A DNA stretch of 64,000 nt from Brucella tritici (lineage in GTDB: Bacteria > Pseudomonadota > Alphaproteobacteria > Rhizobiales > Rhizobiaceae), in NCBI RefSeq assembly GCF_902825325.1, contig NZ_CADEAR010000001.1, forward strand, positions 372,001-436,000, given 5' to 3'. This document shows positions 4,786 to 30,863 of this stretch, piece after piece; positions within the stretch are counted from its first letter, which is position 1, and every line of letters starts with the position of its first letter. The notes under the pieces are model-generated. The model saw only the letters and a program-made list of their open reading frames with translations. It ran no database searches and was not told where the DNA came from. The position numbers and the translations under genes are program-made.

Positions 4786-5838
4786 ATGTCAGTTGGAAAA
4801 CAGTATATTCGCGGCGGTCTTGCCCTCATCATCGGCCTGGCAGGTGTTCTGATGGTGCTCTGGGCGTGGCAGTTGCCGCCTTTCAAACACAGCGTCGAGA
4901 CCACCGATAACGCTTATGTCCGCGGACAGGTAACGGTTATCAGCCCGCAAGTCGCCGGCTATGTCACCAAGGTCAATGTCAACGACTATCAAACCGTGAA
5001 ACAGGGCGACCTCCTGTTCGAGATCGACAGCCGCAGCTATCAGCAGAAGCTGGATCAGGCGCTTGCCGCACTCAACAGCAAGAAGGCAGCGCTTGCCAAC
5101 TCAGAACAGAGCCAGCGTTCGGCCGAAGCAACGATCCAGTCGCGACAGGCGCAGATTTCCGGCGCCAAGGCAGCACTTGAGGTAGCTGAGGCCAATGCGA
5201 AGCGCGTCGAAGCCTTGCTGCCGCGCGGCGTGACGACGCAAAGCTCTGCCGATACAGCACACGGCACCCTGCTTCAGGCACAAGCTTCTGTTGACGAAGC
5301 CCAAGCCGCACTAGCCGTTGCCCAACAGGACCTGCAATCCATCATCGTCAATCGTGACAGCCTCAATGCCGATATCGCCAATGCGGAAGCGACCGTTGAA
5401 CTGGCGCGGATCGACCTGCAGAACACCCGCATCATCGCCCCGCGCGACGGTACGCTCGGCGAAGTGGGCGTCCGGCTCGGTCAATATGTGACGGCGGGAA
5501 CGCAGCTCGTGTCCGTCGTCCCGAAGACCAAATGGGTGATGGCGAATTTCAAGGAAACACAGCTCTACGGCATGAAGGTCGGCCAACCAGTCACTTTCAC
5601 CGTCGATGCGCTGCGTCATGCAGAGTTGACGGGGCATATCGAAGCCTTCGCACCCGCTGCCGGGTCTGAATTCAGCGTCATCAAGTCGGACAATGCGACC
5701 GGCAATTTCACCAAGATCACGCAACGCCTTTCCGTTCGGATCGCCATCGATGAAGATCAACCGGACGCCGCGCATCTGGCACCCGGCATGTCGGTGGTCG
5801 TCCGTGTCGACACCAATGCGGAACCGATTAAAAATTAG
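4786..5838 (+). CDS. HlyD/EmrA-family membrane fusion protein
   Basis: Periplasmic adaptor that links the EmrB-like pump to an outer-membrane channel (350 aa). One N-terminal transmembrane helix (about residues 8-30) is followed by a TTDNAYVRG barrel/lipoyl segment typical of EmrA. Next comes a long alanine- and glutamine-rich coiled-coil hairpin (about residues 90-205), then the second lipoyl half (ARIDLQNTRIIAPRDG) and a beta-barrel (KTKWVMANFKETQL). ATG 4786 is preferred; an in-frame TTG two codons earlier is possible. The gene ends in a 4-base overlap with the convergent PIG-L gene, so no room exists for a terminator between them. Confidence 0.87.
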   Translation: MSVGKQYIRGGLALIIGLAGVLMVLWAWQLPPFKHSVETTDNAYVRGQVTVISPQVAGYVTKVNVNDYQTVKQGDLLFEIDSRSYQQKLDQALAALNSKKAALANSEQSQRSAEATIQSRQAQISGAKAALEVAEANAKRVEALLPRGVTTQSSADTAHGTLLQAQASVDEAQAALAVAQQDLQSIIVNRDSLNADIANAEATVELARIDLQNTRIIAPRDGTLGEVGVRLGQYVTAGTQLVSVVPKTKWVMANFKETQLYGMKVGQPVTFTVDALRHAELTGHIEAFAPAAGSEFSVIKSDNATGNFTKITQRLSVRIAIDEDQPDAAHLAPGMSVVVRVDTNAEPIKN

Positions 5839-6491
5839 AAAAGCCGCAGCTTACGGGCATGGAAAGCTTCGGCATAAGTTTCGGGCGCGCGGCATTCCAT
5901 GCCGCGTAGCCGGGCAAGACCGCGAAAGGTTTCCGGATCGAACCAATCCTTCGAGCGCTGTGTGCCGAAGTGCTTCATCAACAGTTCGATCTTGCGATCC
6001 ATCATCACAGCCGGTAGCGCCGAATAGGCGTTCGGCTGGCCCAGATCGCCATCCCATTTCGGAATTTCATATTCAAGGATCACCTGATCCCGAAACAGGT
6101 TCCATGTCAGCTCGTTGATCGTACGGTGATCCTGATGAGCATCGCCATGGCGATGAGTGAAAACCATATCCGGTAGCCCTCTTCCGCGCTGTTCAATCAG
6201 CCATTGCTTGATTTCGCGGCTTTGCGCCGGGAAATAGCTATCCTCGAAAGAGGCCAGATGGATGTTGAAACTGTCTATCCCGCGCAGAAAATCGCGTGCG
6301 GAAGCCTCTGCCTCCGCGCGCCTTGTCTCGTTCCCCGACAGAACACACCATTCGACATGCAGCGGCGTTCCGCTCTCGATCAGGCTCAGAAGCGTGCCGC
6401 CGCAACCGATCTCGATATCGTCGGAATGCGCGCCCAGACAAAGCAGCTGAAGCGGACGGCTGTTATTTGCCAGTGAGCGCAGATCGATCAT
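5835..6491 (-). CDS. PIG-L/LmbE-family deacetylase
   Basis: Probable zinc-dependent N-deacetylase of 218 aa. The metal-binding AHSDD motif lies at residues 21-25 and a second histidine-rich segment (THRHGDAHQDH) near residues 111-121. PIG-L enzymes remove N-acetyl from amino sugars or similar amides. The start ATG overlaps the stop of the upstream cytidylyltransferase (ATGA), so the two are translationally coupled. In this setting it may deacetylate a nucleotide-linked or lipid-linked amino sugar made by the neighbouring block. That role is inferred from context; small-molecule deacetylation is also possible. Confidence 0.85.
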   Translation of the reverse strand: MIDLRSLANNSRPLQLLCLGAHSDDIEIGCGGTLLSLIESGTPLHVEWCVLSGNETRRAEAEASARDFLRGIDSFNIHLASFEDSYFPAQSREIKQWLIEQRGRGLPDMVFTHRHGDAHQDHRTINELTWNLFRDQVILEYEIPKWDGDLGQPNAYSALPAVMMDRKIELLMKHFGTQRSKDWFDPETFRGLARLRGMECRAPETYAEAFHARKLRLF

Positions 6492-7306
6492 AGCGCTATC
6501 GCGACATTGGTGGCCCGACGTGCGGCTTCTTCCGCCTTGTGTCTCTTCCAGGGCATGTCACCCTTCTCCACCATATCTTCAAGCGTCTGCCAGTCACGCA
6601 GCGTATCCATGGAGCGCCAGAAGCCCTCATACTTATAGGCCATCAACTGGTTTTCAGCGATGAGACGACCGAAGGGCTCGAGCACCAGTTCCTCACCTTC
6701 GCGCATATAGTCGAAGATTTCCTTGCGGAAGAGGAAATAGCCGCCATTGATCCAGATATCGGAGGTGTTCGAGGTTCGGAAAGCCCGCACGTCGCCGCCT
6801 TCGGCAATATCTGCAAGGTGATAGGTCAGCGGCGGACGGACGGCGAGAAAGCAGGCAATCTTGCCGCTGGCTCGGAAACGTTCCGTCATGTCGTCGAGAT
6901 CGACATCGCTGAGACCGTCACTGTAATTGGCGAGGAACATATCTTCATTTGCTACATGCGATCGGGCGCTCCAGAGCCTTTCACCGATATTGCGCCAGAT
7001 ACCCGTATCGAGCAGCGTAACGCTCCAGTCGCGATCCACTTCCTCGAGCAGTTGCACATTGCGCCCGCCATCCGAAACCACACAGTCCGCGAAGGTTTGC
7101 GGGCGGATTGTCAGGAAGAAATCCTTCACGACATTGGCCTTATAGCCCAGGCACAAAACAAACTCGTTGTGCCCATAGTCGCTGTAATATTCCATGACAT
7201 GATGCAGGATCGGCTGATGACCGAGCGGGATCATCGGTTTCGGGACATTCTCCGAATATTCGCGGATTCTGGTTCCAAGACCGCCGCAGAACAAAACGAC
7301 TTTCAT
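6488..7306 (-). CDS. rfbF: Glucose-1-phosphate cytidylyltransferase (RfbF-like)
   Basis: Nucleotidyltransferase expected to join CTP and glucose 1-phosphate to CDP-glucose, the entry step to CDP-linked deoxysugars. The GT-A signature GGLGTRIREYSENVPKPM is at residues 8-25, followed by the LGHQPILHHVM and YSDGLSDVDL metal/sugar segments that are characteristic of RfbF rather than RfbA. Length (272 aa) fits (RfbF about 257 aa). It sits between the methyltransferase (3-base gap) and the PIG-L gene (overlap). A CDP-glucose 4,6-dehydratase, the usual partner, is not obvious in the window, which makes the downstream product uncertain. Confidence 0.85.
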   Translation of the reverse strand: MKVVLFCGGLGTRIREYSENVPKPMIPLGHQPILHHVMEYYSDYGHNEFVLCLGYKANVVKDFFLTIRPQTFADCVVSDGGRNVQLLEEVDRDWSVTLLDTGIWRNIGERLWSARSHVANEDMFLANYSDGLSDVDLDDMTERFRASGKIACFLAVRPPLTYHLADIAEGGDVRAFRTSNTSDIWINGGYFLFRKEIFDYMREGEELVLEPFGRLIAENQLMAYKYEGFWRSMDTLRDWQTLEDMVEKGDMPWKRHKAEEAARRATNVAIAL

Positions 7307-7309
7307 GAC

Positions 7310-8611
7310 TTACCGCTCCTCTGTGAGTAATGCCGGGTCAATCAACGTGACGTGCGGGATGGGAATGATGAACTTCGCACCCCATTCGACCACATGCTGC
7401 ATCTGCCGGATGATCTCGTCCTTGAAATTCCACGGCAGAATGAGGATGTAATCGGGTCGGTATTTGTCGATTGCCGACACATCGTAGATCGGAATGTGCA
7501 TGCCCGGCGTGAAACGCCCGTGCTTGTAGGGATTGCGGTCAACCGTGAAGTCCAGGAAATCTGTGCCGATGCCGCAATAATTCAGAAGCGTATTGCCCTT
7601 GCCCGGCGCGCCGTAACCGCAGATACGTTTTCCAGCATTCTTGGCTGCGATCAGGAAGGACAGGAGATCGCGCTTGGTGCGCCGCGTCTTTTCGGCAAAC
7701 TGCTCATAGGTCGAAATCTCGTTGAGGCCGAAACTCTCTTCGCGCTTCAGAAGGGCGGCGACACGCGGCCCCGCCTTCCGCTTGCTGCTGTTATGCGCAA
7801 GATACACCCGGAGCGACCCGCCATGGGTTGGCAGTTCCTCCACGTCGATGACCTTGAGGTGATGGCGATGCGCCATATACCGGATCGTCAGCAACGAGAA
7901 ATACGAGAAATGCTCGTGATAGATCGTGTCGAACTGGTTCTGCTCGATCAGATTGGCGAGATGCGGAAACTCCAGCGTAATCACGCCCTCCGGCTTCAAC
8001 AGCAGTTGCAGGCCGCGCACAAAGTCATTGAGATCAGGGACTTGCGCCAGAACGTTGTTGCCGATCAGGAGGTCGGCCTTGCGTCCCGCGCCCACCAGTT
8101 CGGCGGCGAGCGTCGAACCAAAGAAATCCACGCGCGTCGGCACGCCCTTGGCAATGGCAGTCTCAGCCACATTGGCAGCCGGTTCGATACCGAGGATCGG
8201 GATGCCCTTCGGCAGAAAATGCTGCAACAGATAGCCATCATTGCTGGCAATCTCGACCACGAAGCTATTCTCGTTCAGTCCCAGCCGCTCGGTGATCTCG
8301 TCGCAATAGGTCTTTGCGTGGCTGACCCAGCTCGTGGCAAAGGACGAAAAATAGGCATATTCAGTGAAAATTTCTGCAGGCGAGAAATACTCCTTCAGCT
8401 GCACCAGATAACAATGGTCACAGACGAGCGCATAGAGCGGGTAATAGGGCTCCATACGGTCAAGGCGATCCGCTGTGATGAAGCTCTCGCAAGGCGGTGA
8501 CATCCCAAGATCGACGAAAGTATGTTTGAGTAGTTTACCGCACAGGCGACAGCCGGTCTGCTCTTGCGCCATGCTCGTGCTCCGCGAAATATCCGGCGTC
8601 TGGATGGTCAT
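7310..8611 (-). CDS. Class I SAM-dependent sugar C-methyltransferase
   Basis: 433 aa with the three-part architecture of nucleotide-sugar C-methyltransferases (TylC3/NovU/CloU type). It has an N-terminal four-cysteine zinc site (Cys21, Cys24, Cys64, Cys67), a central Rossmann SAM-binding domain (VVEIASNDGYLLQHF near residues 120-135), and a C-terminal domain with KRICGYGAPGKGNTLLNY. The YHEHFSYFS segment near residue 230 matches the conserved catalytic His-Glu-His region of this family. These enzymes methylate C3 of a 4-keto-6-deoxy nucleotide sugar. The ATG at 8611 follows a GAGGA ribosome site. It is first in the operon with rfbF and the PIG-L gene, suggesting a CDP-linked C-methyl sugar. 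Confidence 0.85.
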   Translation of the reverse strand: MTIQTPDISRSTSMAQEQTGCRLCGKLLKHTFVDLGMSPPCESFITADRLDRMEPYYPLYALVCDHCYLVQLKEYFSPAEIFTEYAYFSSFATSWVSHAKTYCDEITERLGLNENSFVVEIASNDGYLLQHFLPKGIPILGIEPAANVAETAIAKGVPTRVDFFGSTLAAELVGAGRKADLLIGNNVLAQVPDLNDFVRGLQLLLKPEGVITLEFPHLANLIEQNQFDTIYHEHFSYFSLLTIRYMAHRHHLKVIDVEELPTHGGSLRVYLAHNSSKRKAGPRVAALLKREESFGLNEISTYEQFAEKTRRTKRDLLSFLIAAKNAGKRICGYGAPGKGNTLLNYCGIGTDFLDFTVDRNPYKHGRFTPGMHIPIYDVSAIDKYRPDYILILPWNFKDEIIRQMQHVVEWGAKFIIPIPHVTLIDPALLTEER

Positions 8612-8821
8612 ACGTCATTCCTCGCCTCGTCGAACCTTTTGGCTGGTCCGTTATGGGTTGATAGAGTTGAACTCCGATCCGCGTCGGATAACCAAAATTA
8701 CTAAGCGGCCTAAAAATTTCCGAGACTGTCATCGGGAGCGAGCCGTACATACGATCGGGCGCAACATTCACCGGACGGACTATGCGGTGTAGATACCCAA
8801 TCTTCGCCCAATGGCGGCAGG

Positions 8822-8839
8822 GGCGTAGTCGCCTACCTC
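8822..8839 (+). promoter_or_regulatory. GGCG-N4-CGCCTACCTC element, copy 1 (divergent spacer)
   Basis: The 338-base spacer between the methyltransferase and rfbC carries an inverted repeat GGCG (8822-8825) / CGCC (8830-8833) followed by TACCTC. Nearly the same element recurs in two other spacers of the cluster. It lies 211 bases before the methyltransferase start and 111 bases before rfbC. The same spacer holds small inverted repeats ATCCG/CGGAT (8677-8689) and CATCCG/CGGATG near 8858-8880. No gene is seen in the spacer. A regulatory role is inferred from recurrence only. Confidence 0.45.
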
Positions 8840-8949
8840 ATTCGGACAGTTTGGCCTCATCCGGAAGGCTATTCGGATGCATCGAAGAAGGTTCTATCGC
8901 CCGGCAATCCAGCTGTCAGAATGCAAATGGCTGCAATCCGGGGCAAATC

Positions 8950-9474
8950 ATGCGTTTCACTTCGCTCAATATCGACGGTGCCTGGTCTATCGAGCCGGAA
9001 AGACTTGAAGACGAACGCGGCTGGTTCGCGCGGGTCTATTGCGAAGCTGCATTCGCCGAGCGGCAGATGGAAACGCATTTCCCGCAGCACAGCCTGTCTT
9101 TCTCGCGCGAAGAAGGAACACTGCGCGGCCTCCATTATCAAAACGAACCGCATTCTGAGACCAAGCTCGTCACCTGCCTGCAGGGCGTCATATGGGATGT
9201 TCTGGTCGATCTGCGCCCGCATTCGCCAACCTATCGGCGCTGGACCGGCGTGGAGCTATCCGCCGAAAACGGCGTGCTGCTTTATATCCCCGAAGGATGC
9301 GCGCACGGTTTTCAGACCCTGACGCCCGATGTGCTCGTTCGTTACATGATCTCGAAGCCCTATGCACCGGACTATGCGACAGGTTTACGCTATGATGACC
9401 CGTCGCTCGGCATACCATGGCCAAACAGGCCGAGTGTCATTTCCGACAAGGATTTGGCCTGGCCGCTGCTTTAG
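8950..9474 (+). CDS. rfbC: dTDP-4-dehydrorhamnose 3,5-epimerase family protein
   Basis: Cupin-fold epimerase acting on C3/C5 of a 4-keto-6-deoxy nucleotide sugar (174 aa, usual length about 180). Seen are ERGWFARVY near residue 22, the RGLHYQ motif with catalytic His62, the DLRPHSPTY segment, the IPEGCAHGF motif and the VRYMISKPYAP segment with the catalytic tyrosine region. ATG 8950 is the start that matches the family N-terminus; an upstream extension to 8782 is non-homologous and crosses the regulatory element. RmlA, RmlB and RmlD are absent nearby, so the substrate may be a CDP-4-keto sugar made in this block instead of dTDP-sugar. It ends in a 4-base convergent overlap with the DUF4910 gene. 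Confidence 0.85.
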   Translation: MRFTSLNIDGAWSIEPERLEDERGWFARVYCEAAFAERQMETHFPQHSLSFSREEGTLRGLHYQNEPHSETKLVTCLQGVIWDVLVDLRPHSPTYRRWTGVELSAENGVLLYIPEGCAHGFQTLTPDVLVRYMISKPYAPDYATGLRYDDPSLGIPWPNRPSVISDKDLAWPLL

Positions 9475-10793
9475 CTTTCCACCAATAACTCTGCCTCGCG
9501 GAGCCGGGCAGCCGCGTCGGCGAGGGTTACAAATGGCAGTTTCGTACGCTCTGCCATATCGAGAATGGAATGCTCGCCATCTGCCAGATTGAGCACCCAT
9601 AACAACGCCATTGCGTTCTGTGCAGAGCGGCTATCCCCACCCATGTTTCCATAGAGTCCACGTCTTCCAAGCTGCGGCTCTCCCTTGGGTGAGGTATTCA
9701 GCGGACGCCAGTTTCGTTCAGCAATTTCAATAGCCTGCAAGACCATGTTGAACGACTGCTCAAGATACTCCGGTTTGATGAAATCGAGATTGTCGGCCGA
9801 TGTGTGATATTCCGGAAAGGTGCCATAAAGGCTGCGCTGGAACATGCCGACCGGCAGATTGAATCCCGGCGAACAGAACTGGCGCTCGTCATAGCCGTAG
9901 GGCCAGAAATCATGCATCGTCGCATTGGTGCACTCACCGAGTACGAGGCCCATGATCCGATCAATCTCCGCGTCGCCGCGACGGCTGCGCTTGTAGTTCG
10001 GCCCGCCAGCATCGCCGACGCAGGACAAGACCAGCCCGTGGCGGACCAGCCCCAGTTGCGCCTCGTTATGCCTGAGCCACGCAAGAGCGCCGAAAGTCGC
10101 CGGGCCGAAAAGCAGTCGATAGGTCAGGCGCGTGCGCCGTGATTGCAGAACCTCACCAAGGCGGGTCAGCAGTGCCAGCCCCGAACAGTTATCGTTGGCC
10201 AGCGACGGATGGCAGAGATGGGCCGACAGGATGAAGGTCTCGTCGGTGTCCCCCTCGTGAATGAACTCACCGAAGGTCAGAAAACCGTCGCGGCGCTCAG
10301 CATCGATCACGACGTCATAATCGCCGTACTGCATGGACAGAAATTCGTTATGCGCCATACAGAACCCCCAGCCCTCCGCGTGATAACAGGTGCGATAGGG
10401 AATGAGGTCCGGCTGGTCGGGCAGCGTATGAATATGCTCCCTCAGTGCACTAAGCGGCATTCTTTCCCGCACCGGCACGCTGAAATTCACCACATGCAGA
10501 TTGTGCCGGGCAAAATCGACGACACGATTGCCGTTCATATCCGCAATATAGGCATCACGAATGATCCACTCCTGCGGCGCTTTCCAATCGTAAAGCGATG
10601 TACCGGTCGGAACCTGATGGACTGTCAGCGGCAGATGTTCCCCGATGATGGCAAGCGTTTCGCGCACCCCATCGCCGGCGAGACTGCGGCAGACTGGATA
10701 AAGCCGAGCAGCAAGGTCGTAAATGGCCATCCCGTTCGATACCGGCGGAATGGCTGTTTCAATGCCTTTGCGCCCTGCCCCCGTATCCATCAC
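9471..10793 (-). CDS. DUF4910 (M28 aminopeptidase-like) protein of polysaccharide clusters
   Basis: 440 aa. Central domain resembles zinc aminopeptidases: [16 protein letters not shown] near residues 190-205 supplies a His/Asp metal site, and [11 protein letters not shown] near residue 322 supplies another His. The N-terminal part is the associated DUF2172-like insert and the C-terminal 90 residues look like a winged helix ([12 protein letters not shown]). Proteins of this family recur in surface polysaccharide loci and their reaction is unknown to me. The start overlaps the SDR stop by 4 bases (coupled translation). A later Met at residue 22 ([12 protein letters not shown]) is an alternative start. 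Possible roles are amide hydrolysis or amide formation on an amino sugar; neither is shown. Confidence 0.8.
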
Positions 10794-11851
10794 GCAGTTG
10801 CCCGAAGCTGTTGCGGTTCCTCGTCGGCACGCCGCAGATCGGCATCCAGCACCCCTTCCGCTATCAGCTTGCGGATATGGGCGATGCGCTGGAAGCGTGG
10901 TCCTTCAAACTCCTCAAGAGTCAGCGTCGAGCGGCTATAGGCGGCAAGCAATTCACGCGCGCCGGCAACGGCATCCCATTCCGGTTTCGCTTCCGGCAGC
11001 ACGCGCGCCAGCTTTTCAAAACTGACACGGTAGGAGCGCGTATCCGGCCCGGCATCGTCCGCATATTCGATACGGCAATCGGGAACATTGTCGGCGACGA
11101 TGCCCGCTATATCCCGAATGCGGTAGTTGTGCTCCGTTGATCCGACATTGAAGGCCTCGTTCCAGACTTTTTCGCGCGGGGCTTCCATGGTGGCCATGAA
11201 GGCGCGGGAAATATCGCGAATATGCACGATGGGTCGCCATGGCGTGCCGTCGGACTTGAGATAAATCAGCCCTTTCGTCACTGCCCAGGCCACGAGATTG
11301 TTGAGCACGATATCGAAACGCAGGAACGGCGAAACGCCGTAAGCCGTGGCGGGCCGAAGATACACGGGACAGAAGCTTGCATCCGCCAATTCCCGAATTT
11401 CTTGCTCCGCCCGCACCTTGGACCGGCCATAGGCCGTCACCGGTTTCAGTTCGCCGGTCTCATCGATCAGATCGGCATCGCTGATACCGTAATTGCTGCA
11501 GGATGAAGCAAACAGAAAGCGCCCCACCCCTGCCAGCTTGGCGGCCTTGGCCATCGCGAGGCTCGCCCGATGATTGATGTCGTAGGTCAGTTCCTCGTTG
11601 AGATTGCCAAGCGGATCATTGGAGAGTGCGGCAAGATGAATAACCGCATCAAACCCCTCCAGATCGCGTGGCGACACATCGCGCACGTCCTTTCGGATGG
11701 TCGGCACGCTCATAACGGCGCCGCCTTCTTCAAAACGGCAATGTTCGTAAAGACCGATGTCATAGCCGGACACCTCATGCCCCGCATTTGTGAGGACCGG
11801 CACCATGACCGACCCGATATAGCCCTGATTGCCCGTAACCAGTACTTTCAT
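10790..11851 (-). CDS. NAD-dependent extended SDR, sugar epimerase/dehydratase/reductase
   Basis: 353 aa with Rossmann motif TGNQGYIG at residues 6-13 and the YxxxK dyad in [12 protein letters not shown] near residues 144-155; the upstream Ser is in [11 protein letters not shown]. Extended SDRs of this type oxidise, dehydrate, epimerise or reduce nucleotide-linked sugars. ATG 11851 has GGAG 8 bases upstream; a longer frame to 11923 lacks homology. It is coupled to the DUF4910 gene and lies 119 bases downstream of the GH140-like gene, with the second copy of the GGCG/CGCC element in between. It is the best candidate in the block for either CDP-glucose 4,6-dehydratase or the final 4-ketoreductase, and sequence reading alone cannot decide which. 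Confidence 0.82.
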
Positions 11852-11960
11852 GTCCGACTCCTCAAGCTTTGATAAATGCATGTTAGCCAGAGAGGACAGG
11901 AGCGACGACTTGACCGAAGGCATGCCCGGTTAGGACAAGCGTTTATGAAAAGCGTGAAAG

Positions 11961-11977
11961 GGCGTATCGCCTACCTC
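11961..11977 (+). promoter_or_regulatory. GGCG-N3-CGCCTACCTC element, copy 2
   Basis: GGCG (11961-11964), TAT, CGCC (11968-11971), then TACCTC (11972-11977) and TTTTGG. The element overlaps the stop codon of the GH140-like gene and sits about 110 bases before the start of the SDR gene. If read on the minus strand (GAGGTAGGCG) it could control a promoter for the SDR-DUF4910 pair. Confidence 0.42.
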
Positions 11978-13293
11978 TTTTGGATGTCCTGCAGGCGCCT
12001 GGCGTTGCCGATCAGTAAAAGCCAGTCAGTTCCGCCACCGGCATTTTGCGCCTGCTTGGGTGTGTAGGTCGCAACCGATCCCTCAAGCTTTGGTTGGCCC
12101 GCATCCGCGAACGTGCCGGAAACCGGGTCGTACCAGACAGCCTGCCAGCCTTGTTTGACAATAGCTTTCTGCACCGCAAAACCACCGGCATCGCCATAGA
12201 TAACCGACAAGGTGCCGTCAGGCAGTGATGCGGCATAGTTTCCCGCGCCTGCTGAAATGGCTCTACTGCTATCGGGTTGGAGCTGCGACCATGGCAGTTT
12301 GTCGAAGAGTTTCTTTAACACCGTCATTGACCGCGCGCCGGCACTGTCGAGGGCTTCCTGCCAGCTTCGATCAGCAGTGGAGATCCCCGGTCCCGTGAAA
12401 TGCCAAATCGGGTTGTTACCAAAGAACTGCCCGGCAGCACCCGCCAACAGCGCGCCATAGGCATTACGGCGGATCATCCGCGTAGTCGTCCCCCGCTCGA
12501 ACTCATAGCCCGCTTCCAGCAAAATGACAGGCATTTCAGCAGCTTTTCGCCGTTGAAAAACCGCTGCATGAACATCGTCATATGTATAAACCGTATCGAA
12601 ACTCAACCAGGGCCGGTCGCCCCAGAGTTCAGCCGTATTGCTATTGCGACCAGAATGTACCGTCAGAAGAGCGCCAGGAACAATACTTGAGATTCCATTG
12701 GCCAGACTGGAAACCAGCCGTCGATCAGGATCATCAAAATCCCCGCCCAAGACCCAGACAACATTATGAAACTCCGCAAATCGCTGAGCTATCGTCTGGC
12801 CATAGACACGCATTTTCTCCGGACCGGCAGCCTGCGCCTTGGAGAACCAACCCTGGTTGCCGCCGTTCACCCCAAGGTAGGCGGGCGCGAGAAAAACGAC
12901 GAAGCCGAGTTCTTCCGCCCTCCCGATCACCCAGGCGGCGTGATCGAAATATTTCGGATTGAGTTCACCGAAGGCATCGCTCTTGAACGGCTTCTCGCCA
13001 TAGGCATTGGCGGGCGGGTGACTGGAGAAGTAGTGTTCGACCAGACTGACCAGAATGGCGTTGAAGCCGCGCTTCCGGCGATCTTGCAGATAGGTTTCGA
13101 CATCTTCGCGCTTCAATTCCGCAATCAGCGACCATGCGGTATCACCCTGCAACAGAAAAGGCTTACCGGCTGCATCCTCGAATACGCGCCGGTCCTGACC
13201 AACTGTGATTGGAAACAGATCGGCGGCATATGTCGGCTTCGTTGCCGACCACAGCAGGGTTGCGGCGATCAGGACCGCTGCGAAGTGCTTCAT
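11971..13293 (-). CDS. Secreted DUF4038 / GH140-like glycoside hydrolase
   Basis: 440 aa with a signal peptide (residues 1-23: MKHF, hydrophobic core, then YA|AD). A TIM-barrel-like catalytic region follows: FLLQGDTAWSL near residue 46, the RGFNAILV segment, NVVWVLGGDFD near residue 177 and MPVILLEAGYEFERG near residues 254-268, with Asp and Glu in catalytic-looking positions. The C-terminal 90 residues resemble the putative collagen-binding domain that accompanies DUF4038. The characterised relative is the GH140 apiosidase. Exopolysaccharide loci often carry a secreted hydrolase that trims or releases the polymer, so this may cut the local polysaccharide. It overlaps the aminotransferase stop/start by 4 bases. 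Confidence 0.75.
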   Translation of the reverse strand: MKHFAAVLIAATLLWSATKPTYAADLFPITVGQDRRVFEDAAGKPFLLQGDTAWSLIAELKREDVETYLQDRRKRGFNAILVSLVEHYFSSHPPANAYGEKPFKSDAFGELNPKYFDHAAWVIGRAEELGFVVFLAPAYLGVNGGNQGWFSKAQAAGPEKMRVYGQTIAQRFAEFHNVVWVLGGDFDDPDRRLVSSLANGISSIVPGALLTVHSGRNSNTAELWGDRPWLSFDTVYTYDDVHAAVFQRRKAAEMPVILLEAGYEFERGTTTRMIRRNAYGALLAGAAGQFFGNNPIWHFTGPGISTADRSWQEALDSAGARSMTVLKKLFDKLPWSQLQPDSSRAISAGAGNYAASLPDGTLSVIYGDAGGFAVQKAIVKQGWQAVWYDPVSGTFADAGQPKLEGSVATYTPKQAQNAGGGTDWLLLIGNARRLQDIQKR

Positions 13294-14645
13294 CGCATCG
13301 TCGGCGGATAAGTCGGCGCTTCATTGAAGCGGCGATAGACCACCTGCGAAGGACGTCCCGTCAGATAGGAAGTCACACCATCGTTCAGTGCCCGGACATA
13401 GATGTCGAGCGCGCCGTCGATTGCATCCACCGTTCGCGCAATATCCGTGTCGCTATGGGTATAGCTTACGACCAGCGACGGCATCAGCACGCCACGCCGG
13501 ATTGTCTCCTGAAGAAACAGGGTGCGAAATGCCTGAGATGGCTGCCCCTTCTCGTCGAGCGTTCCATATGCAAGACAGCACGGACGCCCGAACAGGCGAA
13601 GGTGGTTCTGCAGGCCATGGCTGGCAATCGCCGCATTCACGCCCTCTGCCAGTTTGGAGCCTTGTTCGTGAAGCCTCTCGATCACCGGTTCGTCGCGATA
13701 AATCGTCATCGTGGCAATCGCAGCAGCCATGGCATGGGTCTCCGCGCCATGCGTGGTCGAAAGCAGAAAAACGCGCGGATGGTCGGTCTGGGTCAGACCG
13801 CCAAGCTGCATATATTCCGCCTTGCCTGCCAGCGCTGAAATCGCAAAGCCGTTGCCCAGCGCCTTGCCGAAACAGGAAAGATCAGGCTCGACATCATAGA
13901 GCTTCTGCGCCCCGCGCACATGCCAGCGAAAGCCGGTAATCATCTCGTCCAGAATGAACAAGGCCCCGTTTTCGTGGGCGATACGCCTTGCTTCCTGCAG
14001 GAAGTTGTTTTGTGGCTCGTCGGCCTTTGCGGGTTCAAGGATAATGGCCGCGATACGTCCCGGATAATCCTCGAACAAGGCTTTCACGCTCGCAATGTCA
14101 TTATAGCGGAACGTTGCCGTCAAAGCCGAGACCGACGCCGGAATGCCCGCATTCATCTTCGTCGTGCCGATAAACCAATCGTCGGTCGAGAAGAACGGAT
14201 GATCGGCACAGCAGGCAATCATGTCGCGTCCCGTATAGGCGCGCGCAAGTCGTACCGCGCCCGAAGTCGCGTCCGAGCCGTCCTTGCAGAACTTCACCAT
14301 TTCCGCTCCGTCGATCAGCTCCAGAAAGCTCTCCGCGCATTCGACTTCGATGGCGCTTGGACGCGTGAAATTGCAGCCATCCTGCAAGGCGTCACGCACG
14401 GCGCGCACGACGGGTGGATAGGCATGGCCCAGCCCAACCGCACGATTACCCATGCCGTATTCGATATATTCATGGCCGTCGACGTCGAAGACATGCGAGC
14501 CGGAGCCGCGCTGGATGAAGCCGGGTGCCAGAACGGGATACTGGTCGTCGCCCTTGGCATAGGTGTGACAGCCGCCCGGTATCAGCGCGTGTGCCTTGGT
14601 GGCAAGCAGTTGAGAATTGCGAAACTGCGATGTGAAAAGGTTCAT
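13290..14645 (-). CDS. Class III aminotransferase, glutamate-1-semialdehyde aminomutase-like
   Basis: PLP enzyme of 451 aa. Landmarks are IPGGCHTYAKGDDQYP near residue 23, FCKDGSDATSGAVRLARA near residue 118, the cofactor aspartate in FILDEMITGFRW near residue 222 and the Schiff-base lysine in CFGKALGNG near residue 250. This resembles HemL but the genomic position, the insertion after the catalytic Lys (LGGLTQTDHPRVF) and the extended C-terminus argue against tetrapyrrole synthesis. It may aminate a keto sugar or move an amino group in a sugar precursor. It is first in a coupled unit with the secreted hydrolase. The real substrate is unknown. Confidence 0.8.
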   Translation of the reverse strand: MNLFTSQFRNSQLLATKAHALIPGGCHTYAKGDDQYPVLAPGFIQRGSGSHVFDVDGHEYIEYGMGNRAVGLGHAYPPVVRAVRDALQDGCNFTRPSAIEVECAESFLELIDGAEMVKFCKDGSDATSGAVRLARAYTGRDMIACCADHPFFSTDDWFIGTTKMNAGIPASVSALTATFRYNDIASVKALFEDYPGRIAAIILEPAKADEPQNNFLQEARRIAHENGALFILDEMITGFRWHVRGAQKLYDVEPDLSCFGKALGNGFAISALAGKAEYMQLGGLTQTDHPRVFLLSTTHGAETHAMAAAIATMTIYRDEPVIERLHEQGSKLAEGVNAAIASHGLQNHLRLFGRPCCLAYGTLDEKGQPSQAFRTLFLQETIRRGVLMPSLVVSYTHSDTDIARTVDAIDGALDIYVRALNDGVTSYLTGRPSQVVYRRFNEAPTYPPTMR

Positions 14646-14772: not shown

Positions 14773-16005
14773 TCATGCTGCCGACCATCCGGTGTGCAAG
14801 CGCTCGCGCACCTGGCGCAGCCAGTTCTTCACCGGCTTCGGCAAACGGCTGCGCAGACTGGAATGAAGCGCGTTCGGCATCGACCATTGCGAAAGCGCCA
14901 GTGGCGGTGCGATGGCAGGGCGCTCCTCCGCGAGTTTCTCAAGGAGTCCTGCGTAAGCGCGCCCGGCAGTATCATTGTTGAAGACTGTTTCAACCTTCTG
15001 CTGGGCGGCATCCGCCATGCCCGCAAGCAGTTCACGGTCGCGTGCAAGCTGCCCGATATGGCGTGCTGCCTGACGAAAATCGCCGACGGGAAACAAAAGT
15101 CCGTCCTTTCCATCGGTGACGATCATATCGGTCACACCGGCGATCTTCGACACGACCGCCGGACAGCCCTGGCTCATTGCTTCAATGAGCGTGAGTCCGA
15201 ACCCTTCAAAGCGCGACGGCATAACCATGACGTCATGCTGGCTCACCAGCCAGGGAACATCGGAGGGCGCGACCCAGCCGTTGAAACGGACCTTGTCGCC
15301 AAAGGGCGCAAGACGGTGGCGCAGTTCTTTCAGATCGGGGCCATCTCCGGCGACGGTCAGATGATAATCACAGTCGAGCTCACGCAGGATGTTCGGAAGC
15401 CAGAATATGCCCTTTGAGTTATCTTCCATGCGTCCCAGATAGAGCAGCCGCAGCGGACTGCGTCCATCGTGCCTCGGAACATTGCGCGAGAGATGGATAT
15501 CCCGGTTCAACCCATGCGGGATGACCAGCGTGCGCGCCGCATCGAAACCGTGCTGGCGCACGAGATCGTCGCGACAGCGTTTTGAAACTCCCACAGTTGC
15601 ATGAACATGATCGCGGATTGCCCTCGCCGCCGCATAGGTGCCGGGCGTGATATTGTGCACGATCATGATACGCAGAATATCGGCAGGCAGATAGCGCACC
15701 AGATTGGTTTCGAAACGATGAGAGAGGACATTGACGAAAACGGCGTCAAAACGGTTTTCGCGCAGGAAGCCAACCATGCGCTTGGCGCGGGTTTCTTCAT
15801 CCAGCACCCCCATCCCGTCGATGACATCACCCTTGCGAAGGGAATCCTCCAGCCCTTGTCCCGTCGGCACGCTGATCGTATCGCCAGCGGCACCCGAGGC
15901 AAGCCATCGAAGCTCAATGCCCGACTGGCCAAGCGACGAACGCAGACGCATGAAGACCGAATAAGTCCCGCCTATATGGGGACGGACAAAGTAAGCACAT
16001 TTCAT
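14773..16005 (-). CDS. Glycosyltransferase family 4
   Basis: Retaining GT-B glycosyltransferase, 410 aa, cytoplasmic face of the membrane. The C-terminal nucleotide-sugar domain is clear: LRLLYLGRMEDNSKG near residue 200, VAGDGPD near 233, and the E-x7-E motif EGFGLTLIEAMSQG near residues 293-306 followed by AGVTDMI. The start ATG 16005 (MKCAYFVRPHIGG) matches the family N-terminus; a longer frame to 16062 runs through a perfect 11-bp hairpin and is unlikely to be translated. It probably adds one sugar of the repeat unit; donor and acceptor are not predictable. Confidence 0.85.
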   Translation of the reverse strand: MKCAYFVRPHIGGTYSVFMRLRSSLGQSGIELRWLASGAAGDTISVPTGQGLEDSLRKGDVIDGMGVLDEETRAKRMVGFLRENRFDAVFVNVLSHRFETNLVRYLPADILRIMIVHNITPGTYAAARAIRDHVHATVGVSKRCRDDLVRQHGFDAARTLVIPHGLNRDIHLSRNVPRHDGRSPLRLLYLGRMEDNSKGIFWLPNILRELDCDYHLTVAGDGPDLKELRHRLAPFGDKVRFNGWVAPSDVPWLVSQHDVMVMPSRFEGFGLTLIEAMSQGCPAVVSKIAGVTDMIVTDGKDGLLFPVGDFRQAARHIGQLARDRELLAGMADAAQQKVETVFNNDTAGRAYAGLLEKLAEERPAIAPPLALSQWSMPNALHSSLRSRLPKPVKNWLRQVRERLHTGWSAA

Positions 16006-16048
16006 CGCCACAACCTTGTTGCCACAGGACATTTCAAGGGAGACAAGA

Positions 16049-16170
16049 CTTCGAGGGAACAATTCCCTCGAAGCCTTACTCCGGTATATCGGGGGGCAAT
16101 GGATATACCGCTGGCCAGTGTATCGAAATTGCTTTGCCGCGCATTTCGGCTATGAGGGGTACTCCCCCTC
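16049..16170. promoter_or_regulatory. Divergent promoter region with three inverted repeats
   Basis: In the 253-base spacer between two divergent genes are three inverted repeats. The first has arms CTTCGAGGGAA (16049-16059) and TTCCCTCGAAG (16063-16073). The second has arms CGGTATATC (16082-16090) and GATATACCG (16102-16110). The third has arms GAGGGG (16154-16159) and CCCCTC (16165-16170). The first two are perfect. The first is 44 bases upstream of the GT4 start and could be an operator or a 5'-leader hairpin; the others could serve either gene. A clear AACAGGAG ribosome site precedes the plus-strand gene. Confidence 0.5.
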
Positions 16171-16258
16171 CTACAATAGAGGATGGTGTTCACCCTTCTG
16201 CCAGTTTTCCTGACAACGCGTCCGGCATTAGCCTGTTGCTACAACAGGAGAAACGCAT

Positions 16259-17485
16259 ATGAGAATTGGGCTTTTCGGGCAGTTCGGTTCCGGCAATACC
16301 GGCAATGACGGTTCGCTGGAAGCCATGTTGCAACTCCTGAATCGTAACTGTCCCGACGCAAAACTCGTCTGTATCTGCTCCAAGCCCGATGTCGTCGAGC
16401 AGACGTTTGATCTCCCCGCCCGTCCGGTTTCTCAACCGGAACCGTCAAATTGGCTACTGAGGGCAATCAACAAGGCGCTATTGCACTTTCCTCGCCGAAT
16501 AATCGGCTTTATCTGCGCGCTCTTGCTTGCCTCCCAGCTCGATCTCATCGTTGTGCCAGGTACCGGGATACTCGACGACTTCAACGAAAACCCCTTCGGC
16601 TGGCCGTTCGCAGTGCTACGATGGTCCCTCGCAGCCAAACTTGCCAGCACGCGTCTGATTTTTGTATCGATCGGCGCCGGCCCCGTCGATCGTCCATTGA
16701 GCCGGCTCTTCATCCGCTGGGCTTCAATGTTGGCGTCTTTCCGTTCCTATCGAGACCAGATCTCCCATGACTTCACGAAACAGCTGGGCGTAAACTCCAC
16801 TCAGGATTTCGTCAGCGCAGATATCGCCTTCGCATTGCCGACGGTTCCGGATGAAAAGCCGGGCAGCCCGGATCAATGCGTGGGCATCGGCGTGATGATT
16901 TATCGAGGATGGAAAAAGAATGAAAAGGACGGCGACGCCATCTACGAGCAATATGTTGCCAAAATAACCACGCTGGTAAAAAAGCTTCTGGCCAGCGGTC
17001 GTCAGGTTCGCCTGCTTATTGGCGGCAAGGGTGATATAGAGGCCGCCCGTGACGTACTGGAGCAGCTTGCACCAGCCGAAGCGAACAATGTCATATTTGA
17101 ACCATCCGCGTCCCTGCACGACCTCATGCAGCAGATTGCCAAGACAGACATCGTTATTGCCAGCCGTTACCATAACGTCGTCTGCGCTCTTGCCATGGGG
17201 CGTCCCACAATCTCGCTGGCTTATGCGAGCAAGAACGATGCATTGTTGCAAGATACCGGATTGGCAGCATTCTGCCATCGGATCGAAAACTTCGATCCTG
17301 AAACCATACTCTCCCACGTTGAAATTGCTTTCGAGCAGCGCACGATATTGGTCAAGAAAGTGGAGGCCGGTGTACAAGGGTATCGCAGCCGGTTGGCAGG
17401 GCAGGAAGAAATTCTTTACGCCACTTTTCTCGACACGGCCAAGGAGACGGCGAATGTCGCCGTTCCATTGCCGCGCCCCAACTAG
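16259..17485 (+). CDS. Polysaccharide pyruvyl transferase family protein
   Basis: 408 aa, CsaB/ExoV/WcaK-type enzyme transferring pyruvate from phosphoenolpyruvate to a sugar as a ketal. Typical features are the N-terminal GQFGSGNTGNDGSLEAML (residues 7-24), the VVPGTGILDDF segment near residue 98, LIFVSIGAGPVDRP near residue 136, and VIASRYHNVVCALAMGRP near residue 300 with the conserved Arg-His. A hydrophobic stretch near residues 75-95 suggests membrane contact. ATG 16259 follows AACAGGAG. It suggests the repeat unit carries an acidic pyruvyl group. The next gene is convergent, with a 55-base spacer. Confidence 0.85.
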   Translation: MRIGLFGQFGSGNTGNDGSLEAMLQLLNRNCPDAKLVCICSKPDVVEQTFDLPARPVSQPEPSNWLLRAINKALLHFPRRIIGFICALLLASQLDLIVVPGTGILDDFNENPFGWPFAVLRWSLAAKLASTRLIFVSIGAGPVDRPLSRLFIRWASMLASFRSYRDQISHDFTKQLGVNSTQDFVSADIAFALPTVPDEKPGSPDQCVGIGVMIYRGWKKNEKDGDAIYEQYVAKITTLVKKLLASGRQVRLLIGGKGDIEAARDVLEQLAPAEANNVIFEPSASLHDLMQQIAKTDIVIASRYHNVVCALAMGRPTISLAYASKNDALLQDTGLAAFCHRIENFDPETILSHVEIAFEQRTILVKKVEAGVQGYRSRLAGQEEILYATFLDTAKETANVAVPLPRPN

Positions 17486-17540
17486 AGCATTTCTCCCGCT
17501 TTACGTTTGGGGATACCCTAGCGATCCGTCTTATGAATCT

Positions 17541-18515
17541 CTAGCCAGCGTCGCGTCGGCTTCGCCAGGCGGATCGTTTCAACAGGTAATCGAAGGGAGG
17601 CATGACTGCCAGCAACGGCTCACGCTTCAATGCGAACGCCATCAACGAACCTGCCACCTTCGGCTGCCGCGCCAGATTGGAGATCGCAGACCAATAGGCA
17701 CGCTTGGTCAGGCAATCCTGAACCATTGCGAACAGATGGCGCTGATCCGGCAAGCTCGCACCTTCATGATCGAAGAAGGACCGGAATCCGGCTTCGAATT
17801 CCCGGTTCCAACTCAGAATGCCGTTCACTGTCGCCGATTGGTTCTGGGGATGCGAACGCGCGTAAGCCTGAATCTGGCTGGTAGAGGCGATGGAACCGCG
17901 CAGAGCGATACGCAGCCACATTTCGAGATCGTCAGTGTGAGAAAGCGAGGTGCGGTAATATCCTACCTCTTTCTGGATCGACGTCCTTACAACCGCCGTC
18001 GGGCCTATTATCGGGTTAAATGCATGCCGACAGGCAAATTCAATGAATTCATCCCCCGACCATATCCGCCAATCGTCCGGTGCGGCAACGGGAGTGGTGA
18101 GGCCGGGTTCACCGTCGTCGGCTCTGATCCTGCCTGTCGCGCCATGCGCAAGGTGAACGTCCACACATTGCGACAACACGCTTGTCGCCCTCTCCAAAGC
18201 TCCATTCGCCAATAGGTCATCCGAACACAGGATCAGGAAATATTCGGATGTGGCCCAATCTATGCCCTCATTGAATGAGGCATGCGGCCCGAGATTTTTC
18301 CGACGGAGCAGCAATTCGACACGGCTGTCACTGGCCGCAAGGCTCTTCGCCACCTCAACACTATTGTCGGTAGAGGCATTGTCGATGATCAGTAGACGGA
18401 CATTGGCACCTGATTGCCGCAATACACTGTTGGCACAGGTGGAAAGATAGCGACCATAGTTAAAGTTGGGGATGACGACATCGACCGTGGGCTGTTGTTG
18501 TAGGCGTCGGTCCAT
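17541..18515 (-). CDS. Glycosyltransferase family 2
   Basis: Inverting GT-A enzyme, 324 aa. The N-terminal PTVDVVIPNFNYGRYLSTC strand/loop binds nucleotide, DNASTDNS lies near residue 43 and the metal-binding LCSDD near residue 93, and a later ED-type acceptor segment (SLSHTDDLEMWLR) sits near residue 195. ATG 18515 has AGGAGA upstream and starts 11 bases after the flippase stop, so the pair is cotranscribed. A longer frame to 18572 would overlap the flippase. The sugar transferred is unknown. Confidence 0.85.
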   Translation of the reverse strand: MDRRLQQQPTVDVVIPNFNYGRYLSTCANSVLRQSGANVRLLIIDNASTDNSVEVAKSLAASDSRVELLLRRKNLGPHASFNEGIDWATSEYFLILCSDDLLANGALERATSVLSQCVDVHLAHGATGRIRADDGEPGLTTPVAAPDDWRIWSGDEFIEFACRHAFNPIIGPTAVVRTSIQKEVGYYRTSLSHTDDLEMWLRIALRGSIASTSQIQAYARSHPQNQSATVNGILSWNREFEAGFRSFFDHEGASLPDQRHLFAMVQDCLTKRAYWSAISNLARQPKVAGSLMAFALKREPLLAVMPPFDYLLKRSAWRSRRDAG

Positions 18516-18526
18516 GACAAGCTCTC

Positions 18527-20011: not shown

Positions 20012-20308
20012 GATCCGCTCCAGCGGGTATTCCCAGGCGAAATCGTCGTTCTCCGTATCACCTCTTCGTCCCCCATTTCATACTGTCGCGGGCATACCGG
20101 CACCGGCACACTGGCTAAAGCGTTCGCAGGCGCGATTTTCCGGATCAGGCCCAGAATAGACTTTTGCTACCGGCAAGAAATGTCGCCCTTGGTGTTAACC
20201 CCTGACCTGAAAGGAGTATGCGGCACGCTCTAAAGCCAAGTCGTGGATCACCGCGGCAATGGGTAAAAATTTCCAAAGTTTGATCTTTGCACGCGCCTCG
20301 GAGGAGAC
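20012..20308. other. Divergent spacer, flippase / WecA-like gene
   Basis: 297 bases without a supportable gene. It must hold promoters for both divergent operons. CGGAGGAG precedes the plus-strand ATG at 20309. A short CACGCTCTAAAGC segment at 20225-20237 resembles one end of the mosaic repeat, but no full element is present. The GGCG/CGCC element is absent here. Confidence 0.5.
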
Positions 20309-22341: not shown

Positions 22342-22958
22342 TGCTGCTCATCATTCTGCCCTGTGCCGTCCTGTTCGGTCTTGCTGCGATGTTCTTTTCA
22401 GAACCGGTTCTGACCTTGCAGGATGATGGCGGCAAAGCGGATATAATCGTCGTTCCCGGTGGAGACGGGCCGCCCCGCGCAGCACAAGCAGCCCGCCTCT
22501 GGAAGGAAGGCCGCTCGCCCGTGATCCTTGTTACCGGAGACGGTGACTGCCTTTATAACAAGCGGATCATGGTGCGTAAGGGTGTGAAACCATCAGCGAT
22601 CTTCGTGGAATGCCAATCGGGCAGCACATGGCAAAATGCGCGGTTTTCTGCGCCGGTCATGCGCGAGATACAGGCCAGAAGCGCGCTGATCGTGACCAAC
22701 TGGTATCATTCGCGCCGCGCTGTGGCGAGCTTCCGTGCTGCCTGCCCTCAGATGCGCTTCATTTCGTCCCCGATCGGCGGCGATGGCGGTCATCCCGGAT
22801 TCCCGGCAACGCCTGCAGATATGGAACTTGTCGCCAAGGAATATGTGAAGCTCGGCTGGTATCTGCTTTCAGGCCGCATCTTCCCGCACGATCTTGCCGC
22901 TGGCGAACCGGCACCTGATCTTTCTGACGTTTGCGCCTTGGCGGGAGCCGTTCGATGA
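22338..22958 (+). CDS. DUF218 (YdcF/SanA-like) membrane-anchored protein
   Basis: 206 aa with an N-terminal transmembrane helix (residues 2-20) and a DUF218 domain. Visible are DIIVVPGGDGPPRAAQAARLWKEG split around residues 34-57, ILVTGDGD, the SGSTWQNARFS segment (conserved Glu/Ser-Thr region), and LIVTNWYHSRRAVASF near residue 116. The ElyC relative affects undecaprenyl-phosphate metabolism and DUF218 genes recur in polysaccharide loci, so a role in lipid-carrier or envelope homeostasis is plausible. The exact reaction is unknown. Confidence 0.8.
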   Translation: MMLLIILPCAVLFGLAAMFFSEPVLTLQDDGGKADIIVVPGGDGPPRAAQAARLWKEGRSPVILVTGDGDCLYNKRIMVRKGVKPSAIFVECQSGSTWQNARFSAPVMREIQARSALIVTNWYHSRRAVASFRAACPQMRFISSPIGGDGGHPGFPATPADMELVAKEYVKLGWYLLSGRIFPHDLAAGEPAPDLSDVCALAGAVR

Positions 22959-24867: not shown

Positions 24868-24870
24868 TTG

Positions 24871-28561: not shown

Positions 28562-28658
28562 GATTTCGCTTCCTATTGTTCGATCCCGTTAGAACGAGCA
28601 TCGCAATAGCGCGGCGGATACCGCAAGAAACACAAAGGCATGGCCCGTACCGACAGCG

Positions 28659-30856: not shown

Positions 30857-30863
30857 AGCCCCC

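What the first reader, a model, noticed from the sequence alone, without database searches (positions are those of the whole stretch)
5835..14645. Possible undescribed pathway to a C-methylated or branched, possibly aminated CDP-linked sugar
Seen in the sequence: a CDP-glucose-forming cytidylyltransferase, a sugar C-methyltransferase with intact zinc cysteines, a 3,5-epimerase, an extended SDR, a PIG-L deacetylase, a DUF4910 aminopeptidase-like protein and a GSA-like aminotransferase packed into coupled units. Known: RfbF plus C-methyltransferase plus epimerase/reductase logic produces C-methyl deoxysugars through a 4-keto intermediate. Not explained: no recognisable CDP-glucose 4,6-dehydratase (RfbG), no rmlA/B/D for the epimerase, and three enzymes (GSA-like, DUF4910, PIG-L) with no assigned place. 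Inference: the aminotransferase adds an amine, DUF4910/PIG-L make or remove an amide, and the product is a new sugar in the polymer.
Basis: partly seen in the sequence, partly recalled or inferred. Interest (0 to 1): 0.72.

Follow-up and report, generated by a model that had tools for sequence, protein, structure and literature searches.

The report
C-methyl sugar pathway without dehydratase
A conserved gene block in soil and plant-associated bacteria probably builds a methyl-branched sugar for the cell-surface coat, using an oxidising enzyme where known pathways use a dehydratase, so the product may be a sugar type not yet described.

Summary
The genes are real, intact and form a conserved unit. 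Around 80 relatives of the SDR, 36 loci carry all seven genes; 37 of 41 loci with the six core genes share one order and orientation. None of 22 genomes searched (own plus 21) has a CDP-glucose 4,6-dehydratase (RfbG) above cut-off. The SDR is not one: its catalytic Asp-Glu pair is Cys-Ser/Ala in 80 of 80, and its nearest solved relative is Cj1427, a C4-dehydrogenase. A second, wider version has RfbF (true equivalog in 5 of 5 tested), SDR and C-methyltransferase; in eight loci SDR and methyltransferase are fused. Best model: the SDR makes the 4-ketone without 6-deoxygenation, the methyltransferase adds the branch, RmlC epimerises where present, and the SDR probably reduces the ketone. Activities are inferred; a dehydratase of another pathway acting in trans (RmlB or Gmd, one of which every genome tested has) is not excluded.

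The parts
5835..6491 (-). PIG-L family de-N-acylase (PF02585), motif AHSDDIE; may remove an N-acyl group
   Evidence: next to the RfbF relative on the same strand in 49 of 49 loci that hold both
6488..7306 (-). divergent RfbF-like cytidylyltransferase; EKP replaced by RTS, TGGR-type loop by NIGER; sugar substrate uncertain
7310..8611 (-). sugar C-methyltransferase of the TylC3/TcaB9 family, zinc cysteines and YHEH motif present
8950..9474 (+). RmlC-type 3,5-epimerase, second copy in the genome (ORF extends up to 8782; 8950 is the start that fits relatives)
9471..10793 (-). DUF4910 M28-peptidase-like protein with DUF2172 and HTH_47; zinc ligands of 3k9t kept
10790..11923 (-). extended SDR, Cj1427-like; likely C4-oxidase (and perhaps re-reductase) of the CDP-sugar; relatives start at 11851
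13290..14645 (-). class III aminotransferase of NF004856 (PRK06209, GSA-like), PLP lysine motif kept; accessory
14773..36658 (.). surrounding exopolysaccharide locus: glycosyltransferases, pyruvyltransferase, flippase, WecA-like priming transferase, Gmd/Fcl, polysaccharide export and chain-length proteins, LuxR and Crp regulators

Best explanation
The block makes a C-methyl-branched CDP-sugar for an exopolysaccharide by a route that replaces the 4,6-dehydratase with a 4-dehydrogenase. Steps: (1) a cytidylyltransferase makes the CDP-sugar (CDP-glucose in the wider version with true RfbF; in the window's version the sugar may differ). (2) The SDR oxidises C4 to a ketone, leaving the 6-OH in place. 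(3) The zinc C-methyltransferase adds a methyl beside the ketone, by family precedent at C3. (4) RmlC epimerises C3/C5 where it is present. (5) The ketone is reduced, most simply by the same SDR, which would make the route redox-neutral; an alpha-ketoglutarate-recycled oxidation as in Cj1427 plus a separate reductase is the alternative. PIG-L and DUF4910 are proposed to trim or move an N-acyl group. The GSA-like enzyme and the apiosidase-like hydrolase are accessory. Shown here: gene content, conservation, order, fusion, motifs, absence of RfbG. Inferred: every enzymatic activity and the product.
For: RfbG above cut-off in 0 of 22 genomes: own and 21 others (1 of 14 control genomes is over the cut-off, so the model can ring). 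The SDR lacks the dehydratase Asp-Glu pair in 80 of 80 (SSCSNYG 79, SSCANYG 1). Its best PDB match by profile is Cj1427: 163 bits, next 101; the first six Foldseek rows are all Cj1427 chains. Cj1427 oxidises C4 of a GDP-heptose without deoxygenation (PMC10680097, passages). SDR, C-methyltransferase and RfbF are the only query genes found in 13 of 80 loci; RfbF there is a true equivalog in 5 of 5 tested of 14 such loci and has EKP in 14 of 14. SDR-methyltransferase fusions in 8 of 80 loci and on a Leisingera plasmid tie the two steps. Two methyltransferase lineages pair with the same SDR family (few outgroups). Of four plasmid regions inspected with a related methyltransferase (46-50%), three (S. 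meliloti, Desulfolutivibrio, Peteryoungia) have rfbF, rfbG and an RmlC homologue; the fourth (Azospirillum lipoferum) has rfbF, no annotated rfbG in 15 kb, and an SDR 47% identical to the window's. So the window's set looks like the classical operon with RfbG exchanged for the SDR. In G148, SDR, CMT-RfbF-PIG-L and DUF4910-RmlC-GSA lie on three contigs of one genome.
Confidence: 0.55

Rival explanations
1. Ordinary 3-C-methyl-6-deoxyhexose route: a 4,6-dehydratase encoded elsewhere (RmlB or Gmd) supplies the 4-keto-6-deoxy sugar, and the SDR is only the final 4-ketoreductase.
For: The own genome has RmlB and a Gmd/Fcl pair about 17 kb from the SDR. Gmd is over the cut-off in 23 of 27 genomes of both versions and RmlB in 24 of 27; none lacks both. 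Gmd and Fcl are annotated beside the block on the Shinella HZN7 and Qingshengfaniella plasmids. A GDP-4-keto-6-deoxymannose route was proposed for virenose in Coxiella (PMC3539893, passages).
Against: Neither dehydratase is universal: among six-gene genomes L114, L122 and L130 have no Gmd and L111, L117 and L131 no RmlB over the cut-off. Gmd-like and Fcl-like genes (50% identity or more) lie in the fetched flanks of only 1 and 2 of 44 six-gene loci and 0 of 14 of the second version, a weak test because the window's own Gmd lies outside such flanks. The block carries a cytidylyltransferase, while no RfbG was found in 22 of 22 genomes. SDR-methyltransferase fusions sit beside RfbF.
Confidence: 0.2
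2. One reading: a C-methylated and aminated sugar, with the GSA-like enzyme transaminating the ketone and DUF4910/PIG-L handling the amide.
For: GSA occurs in 46 of 59 DUF4910-bearing loci and 0 of 21 without. PLP lysine motif found in 41 of 46. PIG-L is a de-N-acylase family. Class III C-6' aminotransferases are distant relatives.
Against: Nine of 13 DUF4910-bearing genomes without a local GSA have no close homologue, six of them with all six core genes. GSA tracks the apiosidase-like hydrolase (32 of 34 apiosidase loci have it) and overlaps it by 4 bases in the window, which suggests a side function. Known NDP-sugar ketone transaminases are mostly of the DegT family (recalled).
Confidence: 0.13
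3. The SDR is a 4-epimerase or other modifying enzyme for a plain CDP-sugar, and the C-methyltransferase acts on something else in the locus.
For: Fold scores are tied with UDP-sugar 4-epimerases. SDR loci in genomes without any close methyltransferase homologue exist.
Against: In-frame SDR-methyltransferase fusions and fixed gene order; methyltransferases of this family need a ketone (recalled).
Confidence: 0.12

Closest known systems
RfbF-RfbG-C-methyltransferase-RmlC operons (S. meliloti pSymB, compare SMb21416-21418; Desulfolutivibrio; Peteryoungia)
   Same: Methyltransferase 46-50% identical to the window's, an RmlC homologue and a cytidylyltransferase
   Different: They carry RfbG (CDP-glucose 4,6-dehydratase); the window's kind has a Cj1427-like SDR instead, plus DUF4910 and PIG-L
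Campylobacter jejuni GDP-heptose route with Cj1427 (C4-dehydrogenase), Cj1430 (3,5-epimerase), Cj1428 (4-reductase)
   Same: Oxidation at C4 without deoxygenation, then epimerisation; closest solved SDR at about 30% identity
   Different: GDP-heptose, no C-methylation, separate 4-reductase
DUF4910 neighbourhoods of Das et al. 2014 (CA_C2195, PDB 3k9t)
   Same: DUF4910 beside an NDP-sugar SDR in a surface-sugar locus; same zinc ligands
   Different: CA_C2195 sits with sialic-acid-synthase-like genes, not with RfbF, C-methyltransferase and RmlC
TylC3/TcaB9 antibiotic-sugar C-methyltransferases
   Same: Same domain set; E 1.5e-85 to the D-mycarose 3-C-methyltransferase 4rv9
   Different: Those act on dTDP-4-keto-2,6-dideoxy sugars (recalled); here no 6-deoxygenating enzyme is in the block

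Membership tests
CDP-glucose 4,6-dehydratase (RfbG, TIGR02622) for the SDR | score over the curated cut-off | tested here: not met
   TIGR02622 is not among the SDR's 17 NCBIfam matches, and the SDR's place is not among the 11 hits in the own genome
CDP-glucose 4,6-dehydratase (RfbG, TIGR02622) for the SDR | catalytic Asp-Glu after the active-site Ser/Thr (motif recalled) | tested here: not met
   SSCSNYG in 79 and SSCANYG in 1 of 80 relatives
Cj1427-like NDP-sugar C4-dehydrogenase | closest relatives by sequence and fold | tested here: inconclusive
   6vo6 is best by profile (163 against 101 bits) and by Foldseek E-value, but by Z it is tied with 4-epimerases
Cj1427-like NDP-sugar C4-dehydrogenase | oxidation of C4 with tightly bound NAD(H) and alpha-ketoglutarate | not testable with these tools
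   needs the enzyme; activity of Cj1427 from PMC10680097 passages
Glucose-1-phosphate cytidylyltransferase (TIGR02623) for the window's RfbF relative | curated cut-off 300.25 bits | tested here: not met
   205.5 bits; five relatives with RfbF of this kind or its 50-70% sister kind score 207-236, five of the second version 359-375
Glucose-1-phosphate cytidylyltransferase (TIGR02623) for the window's RfbF relative | EKP sugar-phosphate motif (role recalled) | tested here: not met
   0 of 51 close relatives; 14 of 14 of the second version; window has RTS
Sugar C-methyltransferase (PF08421/PF08484, TylC3 kind) | zinc-binding and C-terminal domains over cut-off, YHEH motif | tested here: met
   83.5 and 229.4 bits; YHEH in 42 of 42 close relatives; 4 of 14 in the second version read YHQH
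RmlC 3,5-epimerase (TIGR01221) | curated cut-off 155.75 bits | tested here: met
   167.1 bits
RmlC 3,5-epimerase (TIGR01221) | acts on dTDP-4-keto-6-deoxyglucose | not testable with these tools
   a separate rmlC lies in the rml operon, so another substrate is likely
DUF4910 (PF16254) | domain over cut-off, zinc ligands of 3k9t | tested here: met
   353.5 bits; ligands aligned; first motif in 56 of 57 and YHTS.D in 57 of 57 relatives
Glutamate-1-semialdehyde aminomutase (HemL) | hemL equivalog cut-off 527.3 bits (TIGR00713) | tested here: not met
   227.1 bits; it is over the cut-off of NF004856 instead, 840 against 486 bits, a model that also bears the aminomutase name
PIG-L de-N-acetylase (PF02585) | cut-off and AHxDDxE motif | tested here: met
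   57.1 against 28.2 bits; motif in 50 of 50 relatives

The most novel reading that the evidence does not exclude
The window's version makes a new class of CDP-linked C-methyl sugar with the 6-OH kept and nitrogen chemistry built in: its cytidylyltransferase, which lacks the EKP sugar-phosphate motif, activates a sugar other than glucose (for example an N-acylated one, given that PIG-L is its neighbour in 49 of 49 loci with both), the Cj1427-like SDR oxidises and later re-reduces C4, and DUF4910 performs a non-peptidase amide reaction on the sugar, which would give this structurally solved orphan family a function.
Probability: 0.2. Interest if true: 0.82.

Novelty: new variant of a known kind. 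Interest (0 to 1): 0.57.

Why it matters
If right, nucleotide-sugar C-methylation does not depend on 6-deoxygenation. That predicts 6-hydroxy C-methyl hexoses in surface polymers of rhizobia, roseobacters, cyanobacteria and Thermanaerothrix, gives a testable function for a Cj1427-like SDR family with a fused methyltransferase partner, and puts DUF4910, a solved structure without a known function, on a defined pathway.

Tried and rejected
DUF4910 as the marker of the pathway: rejected. It occurs in 22 of 289 class genomes, own included, 21 over the cut-off. Of the 20 regions fetched, only L025 also has RmlC and a close GSA (62%); L037 and L038 have weaker GSA matches (31%, 43%), L031 a partial SDR match. 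Neighbours tested elsewhere are varied, for example sulfotransferase, GFO/IDH/MocA, WbqC, NeuB (10 proteins from 8 regions). DUF4910 therefore has wider use than this set.

Gmd/Fcl as the source of the ketone: the flank count speaks against it but is a weak test, since the window's own Gmd lies outside such flanks. For that reason I lowered the best explanation from 0.58 to 0.55 and raised this rival from 0.17 to 0.20.

The virenose model of Coxiella was read in passages only and differs (GDP or dTDP route; the word cytidylyltransferase does not occur in the main text).

Bradyrhizose, the bicyclic sugar of photosynthetic bradyrhizobia, was considered because Bradyrhizobium loci came up. The paper (PMC4743980, passages) names an eleven-gene cluster with a dTDP-glucose 4,6-dehydratase; no link to this set was shown or tested.

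Literature: ten searches. None listed a paper that I recognised as an RfbF-SDR-C-methyltransferase route without RfbG; I saw listings, not the papers, beyond the six read in part (PMC4000134, PMC10832277, PMC10680097, PMC3539893, PMC4053727, PMC4743980). The library holds open-licence papers only. Published S. fredii HH103 exopolysaccharide is glucose, galactose, glucuronic acid and pyruvate (PMC4270759, start of abstract in the listing); whether this locus makes it is not known to me.

The methyltransferase tree has only four RfbG-partnered sequences and midpoint rooting; it is suggestive only. Six of 60 loci with a methyltransferase were dropped there for low coverage or stops (L102, L114, L129, L143, L155, L161). 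Motif counts include frames with stops (DUF4910 1, methyltransferase 3, GSA 2, RfbF 2); misses may be alignment ends. My second PIG-L pattern matched only 4 of 50 and is not used. The first CxxC pattern matched 35 of 42 methyltransferases, the rest perhaps cut at the alignment start. The 15 distant RfbF rows are the 14 of the second version plus an extra copy in L144, which alone lacks EKP.

Counts of six-gene loci differ with the filter: 43 of 80 at 25% coverage, 44 with none, 41 at 60%.
Full report
What is there. The finding's stretch holds eight genes, not seven. On the minus strand run gsa (13290-14645), an apiosidase-like hydrolase (11971-13293), sdr (10790-11923), duf4910 (9471-10793), cmt (7310-8611), rfbF (6488-7306) and pigL (5835-6491); rmlC (8950-9474) runs on the plus strand. 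Overlaps of up to four bases join gsa/apiosidase, sdr/duf4910 and rfbF/pigL. The frames are open and the family matches strong, weakest for PIG-L. The block stands at one end of an exopolysaccharide locus with glycosyltransferases, a pyruvyltransferase, a flippase, a WecA-like priming enzyme, Gmd/Fcl and export proteins. The host is close to Brucella species formerly placed in Ochrobactrum (placement recalled): the SDR is 97% identical to that of B. cytisi.

Conservation. Within the flanks (up to 10 kb a side), 36 of 80 loci hold all seven enzymes; 43 of 80 hold the six without requiring GSA. With stricter coverage 41 hold the six, and 37 of these have the same order and strands, sdr+ duf4910+ rmlC- cmt+ rfbF+ pigL+. 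On plasmids seven of the eight SDR loci inspected (Ochrobactrum, Shinella, Mesorhizobium, two S. fredii, Rhizobium, Qingshengfaniella) show the same six genes in the same order; GSA is near in six of the seven. This set is fetched with the SDR and leans to near relatives. Starting instead from the RfbF relative in 289 genomes of the class, four genomes other than the own have one at 52% identity or more. G148 has all partners on three contigs (SDR on C4, CMT-RfbF-PIG-L on C12, DUF4910-RmlC-GSA on C20). G186 and G066 have RfbF-PIG-L-SDR-RmlC with no methyltransferase in the 20 kb read. G205 has CMT-RfbF-PIG-L on a 4-kb contig and no SDR of this family was found.

A second version. Fourteen of the 80 loci have RfbF, SDR and a methyltransferase but no DUF4910 (13 with just these of the query genes, one with RmlC too). 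By record title they come from eight genera or bins that I place in Rhodobacterales from memory, a Hyphomicrobiaceae bin, a Deltaproteobacteria bin, Pleurocapsa, Symploca, Phormidesmis (cyanobacteria) and Thermanaerothrix (Chloroflexota, recalled). In those eight (L160, L162, L163, L168, L170, L171, L174, L178) SDR and methyltransferase form one open frame; the Leisingera plasmid protein has 780 residues. RfbF in this version is a true equivalog (359-375 bits, cut-off 300) in 5 of 5 tested; in five relatives of the window's kind or its sister kind it is 207-236.

No dehydratase for CDP-glucose. RfbG was sought with TIGR02622. The own genome has none (best 81 of 278 bits, at the place that scores 490 as RmlB). 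The SDR itself is not RfbG: at the dehydratase Asp-Glu positions it has Cys-Ser (79 of 80) or Cys-Ala (1 of 80) (motif role recalled). Its nearest solved relative is Cj1427: 163 bits against 101 for the next. A model (mean pLDDT 87.8) puts six Cj1427 chains first in Foldseek, although by Z it is tied with epimerases (35.2 and 34.9). Cj1427 oxidises C4 of a GDP-heptose with bound NAD(H) recycled by alpha-ketoglutarate, without deoxygenation (PMC10680097, passages). Against this reading: dehydratases of other nucleotide sugars are common in these genomes. Gmd is over its cut-off in 23 and RmlB in 24 of 27 genomes, and none lacks both. Three six-gene genomes lack Gmd (L114, L122, L130) and three others lack RmlB (L111, L117, L131), so no single one could serve all.

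How it most likely works. Four plasmid regions with a related methyltransferase were inspected. The window's set reads as the classical route with RfbG replaced by a C4-dehydrogenase. Methyltransferases of the window's kind are closer to the RfbG partners (mean 49%) than to the second version's (41%), so the same SDR family seems to be paired with two methyltransferase lineages (few outgroups, midpoint root). The chemistry that follows (4-ketone with 6-OH kept, methyl beside it, epimerisation, reduction) is inference. No separate ketoreductase was identified, so re-reduction by the SDR is the simplest guess.

What the other genes do. The window's RfbF relative lacks the EKP motif (0 of 51 relatives have it, against 14 of 14 in the second version), so its sugar may not be glucose. 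PIG-L is adjacent to it in 49 of 49 loci with both, which hints at an N-acyl sugar; this is a guess. DUF4910 keeps the zinc ligands of 3k9t; a sugar-amide role was proposed in 2014 (PMC4000134). DUF4910 also occurs without this set. The GSA-like enzyme occurs in 46 of 59 loci with DUF4910 and 0 of 21 without, but 9 of 13 genomes with DUF4910 and no local GSA have no close homologue, six of them with the six core genes. It tracks the apiosidase-like hydrolase (32 of 34). It is therefore accessory, and amination is not shown. The methyltransferase, too, is missing in part: of 19 genomes searched that lack it at the SDR locus, 11 have it elsewhere at 63-69% identity and 8 do not.

Verdict. The pathway variant was not found in print by ten searches of an open-licence library (listed in Tried and rejected). 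Activities and product remain to be shown.

Noticed in passing
second-version loci, for example L160, L163, L168, L170, L173, L174, L180, L181: One or more further, distant C-methyltransferase homologues (about 20-36% identity) lie near in 13 of the 14 loci; three tested have Methyltransf_23 and Methyltransf_14 domains but no zinc domain over the cut-off. Their purpose is unknown.
   Followed up: partly
G186:C34:241730-243564 and G066:C1:4304074-4305908: These two genomes carry a second member of the SDR family right behind a second RfbF-like gene, so both versions of the route may live in one genome.
   Followed up: no
window 11971-13293: Apiosidase-like hydrolase with an apparent signal peptide; its family is found in 34 of 80 loci, 32 of them with GSA. 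It may process the branched polymer outside the cytoplasm.
   Followed up: partly
[quoted passage not shown]
   Followed up: partly
L181:5923-6729: A PIG-L protein also sits in a cyanobacterial locus of the second version.
   Followed up: no
L177, L179, L180, L181: The cyanobacterial and Thermanaerothrix methyltransferases read YHQH where the others read YHEH; this might change the chemistry.
   Followed up: no
L188:4246-5271: Azospirillum lipoferum plasmid: an SDR 47% identical to the window's near RfbF and a C-methyltransferase, with hisH/hisF-like and acylneuraminate cytidylyltransferase genes between.
   Followed up: no
L102: Several genes of the block appear split into two pieces in this Brucella cytisi contig, perhaps sequencing errors; not pursued.
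   Followed up: no
window 3130-5838: MFS transporter and HlyD/EmrA-like adaptor (below the EmrA cut-offs) next to the block; not part of it.
   Followed up: no
window 50337-52307: GGDEF-EAL cyclic-di-GMP protein about 14 kb beyond the polysaccharide locus.
   Followed up: no
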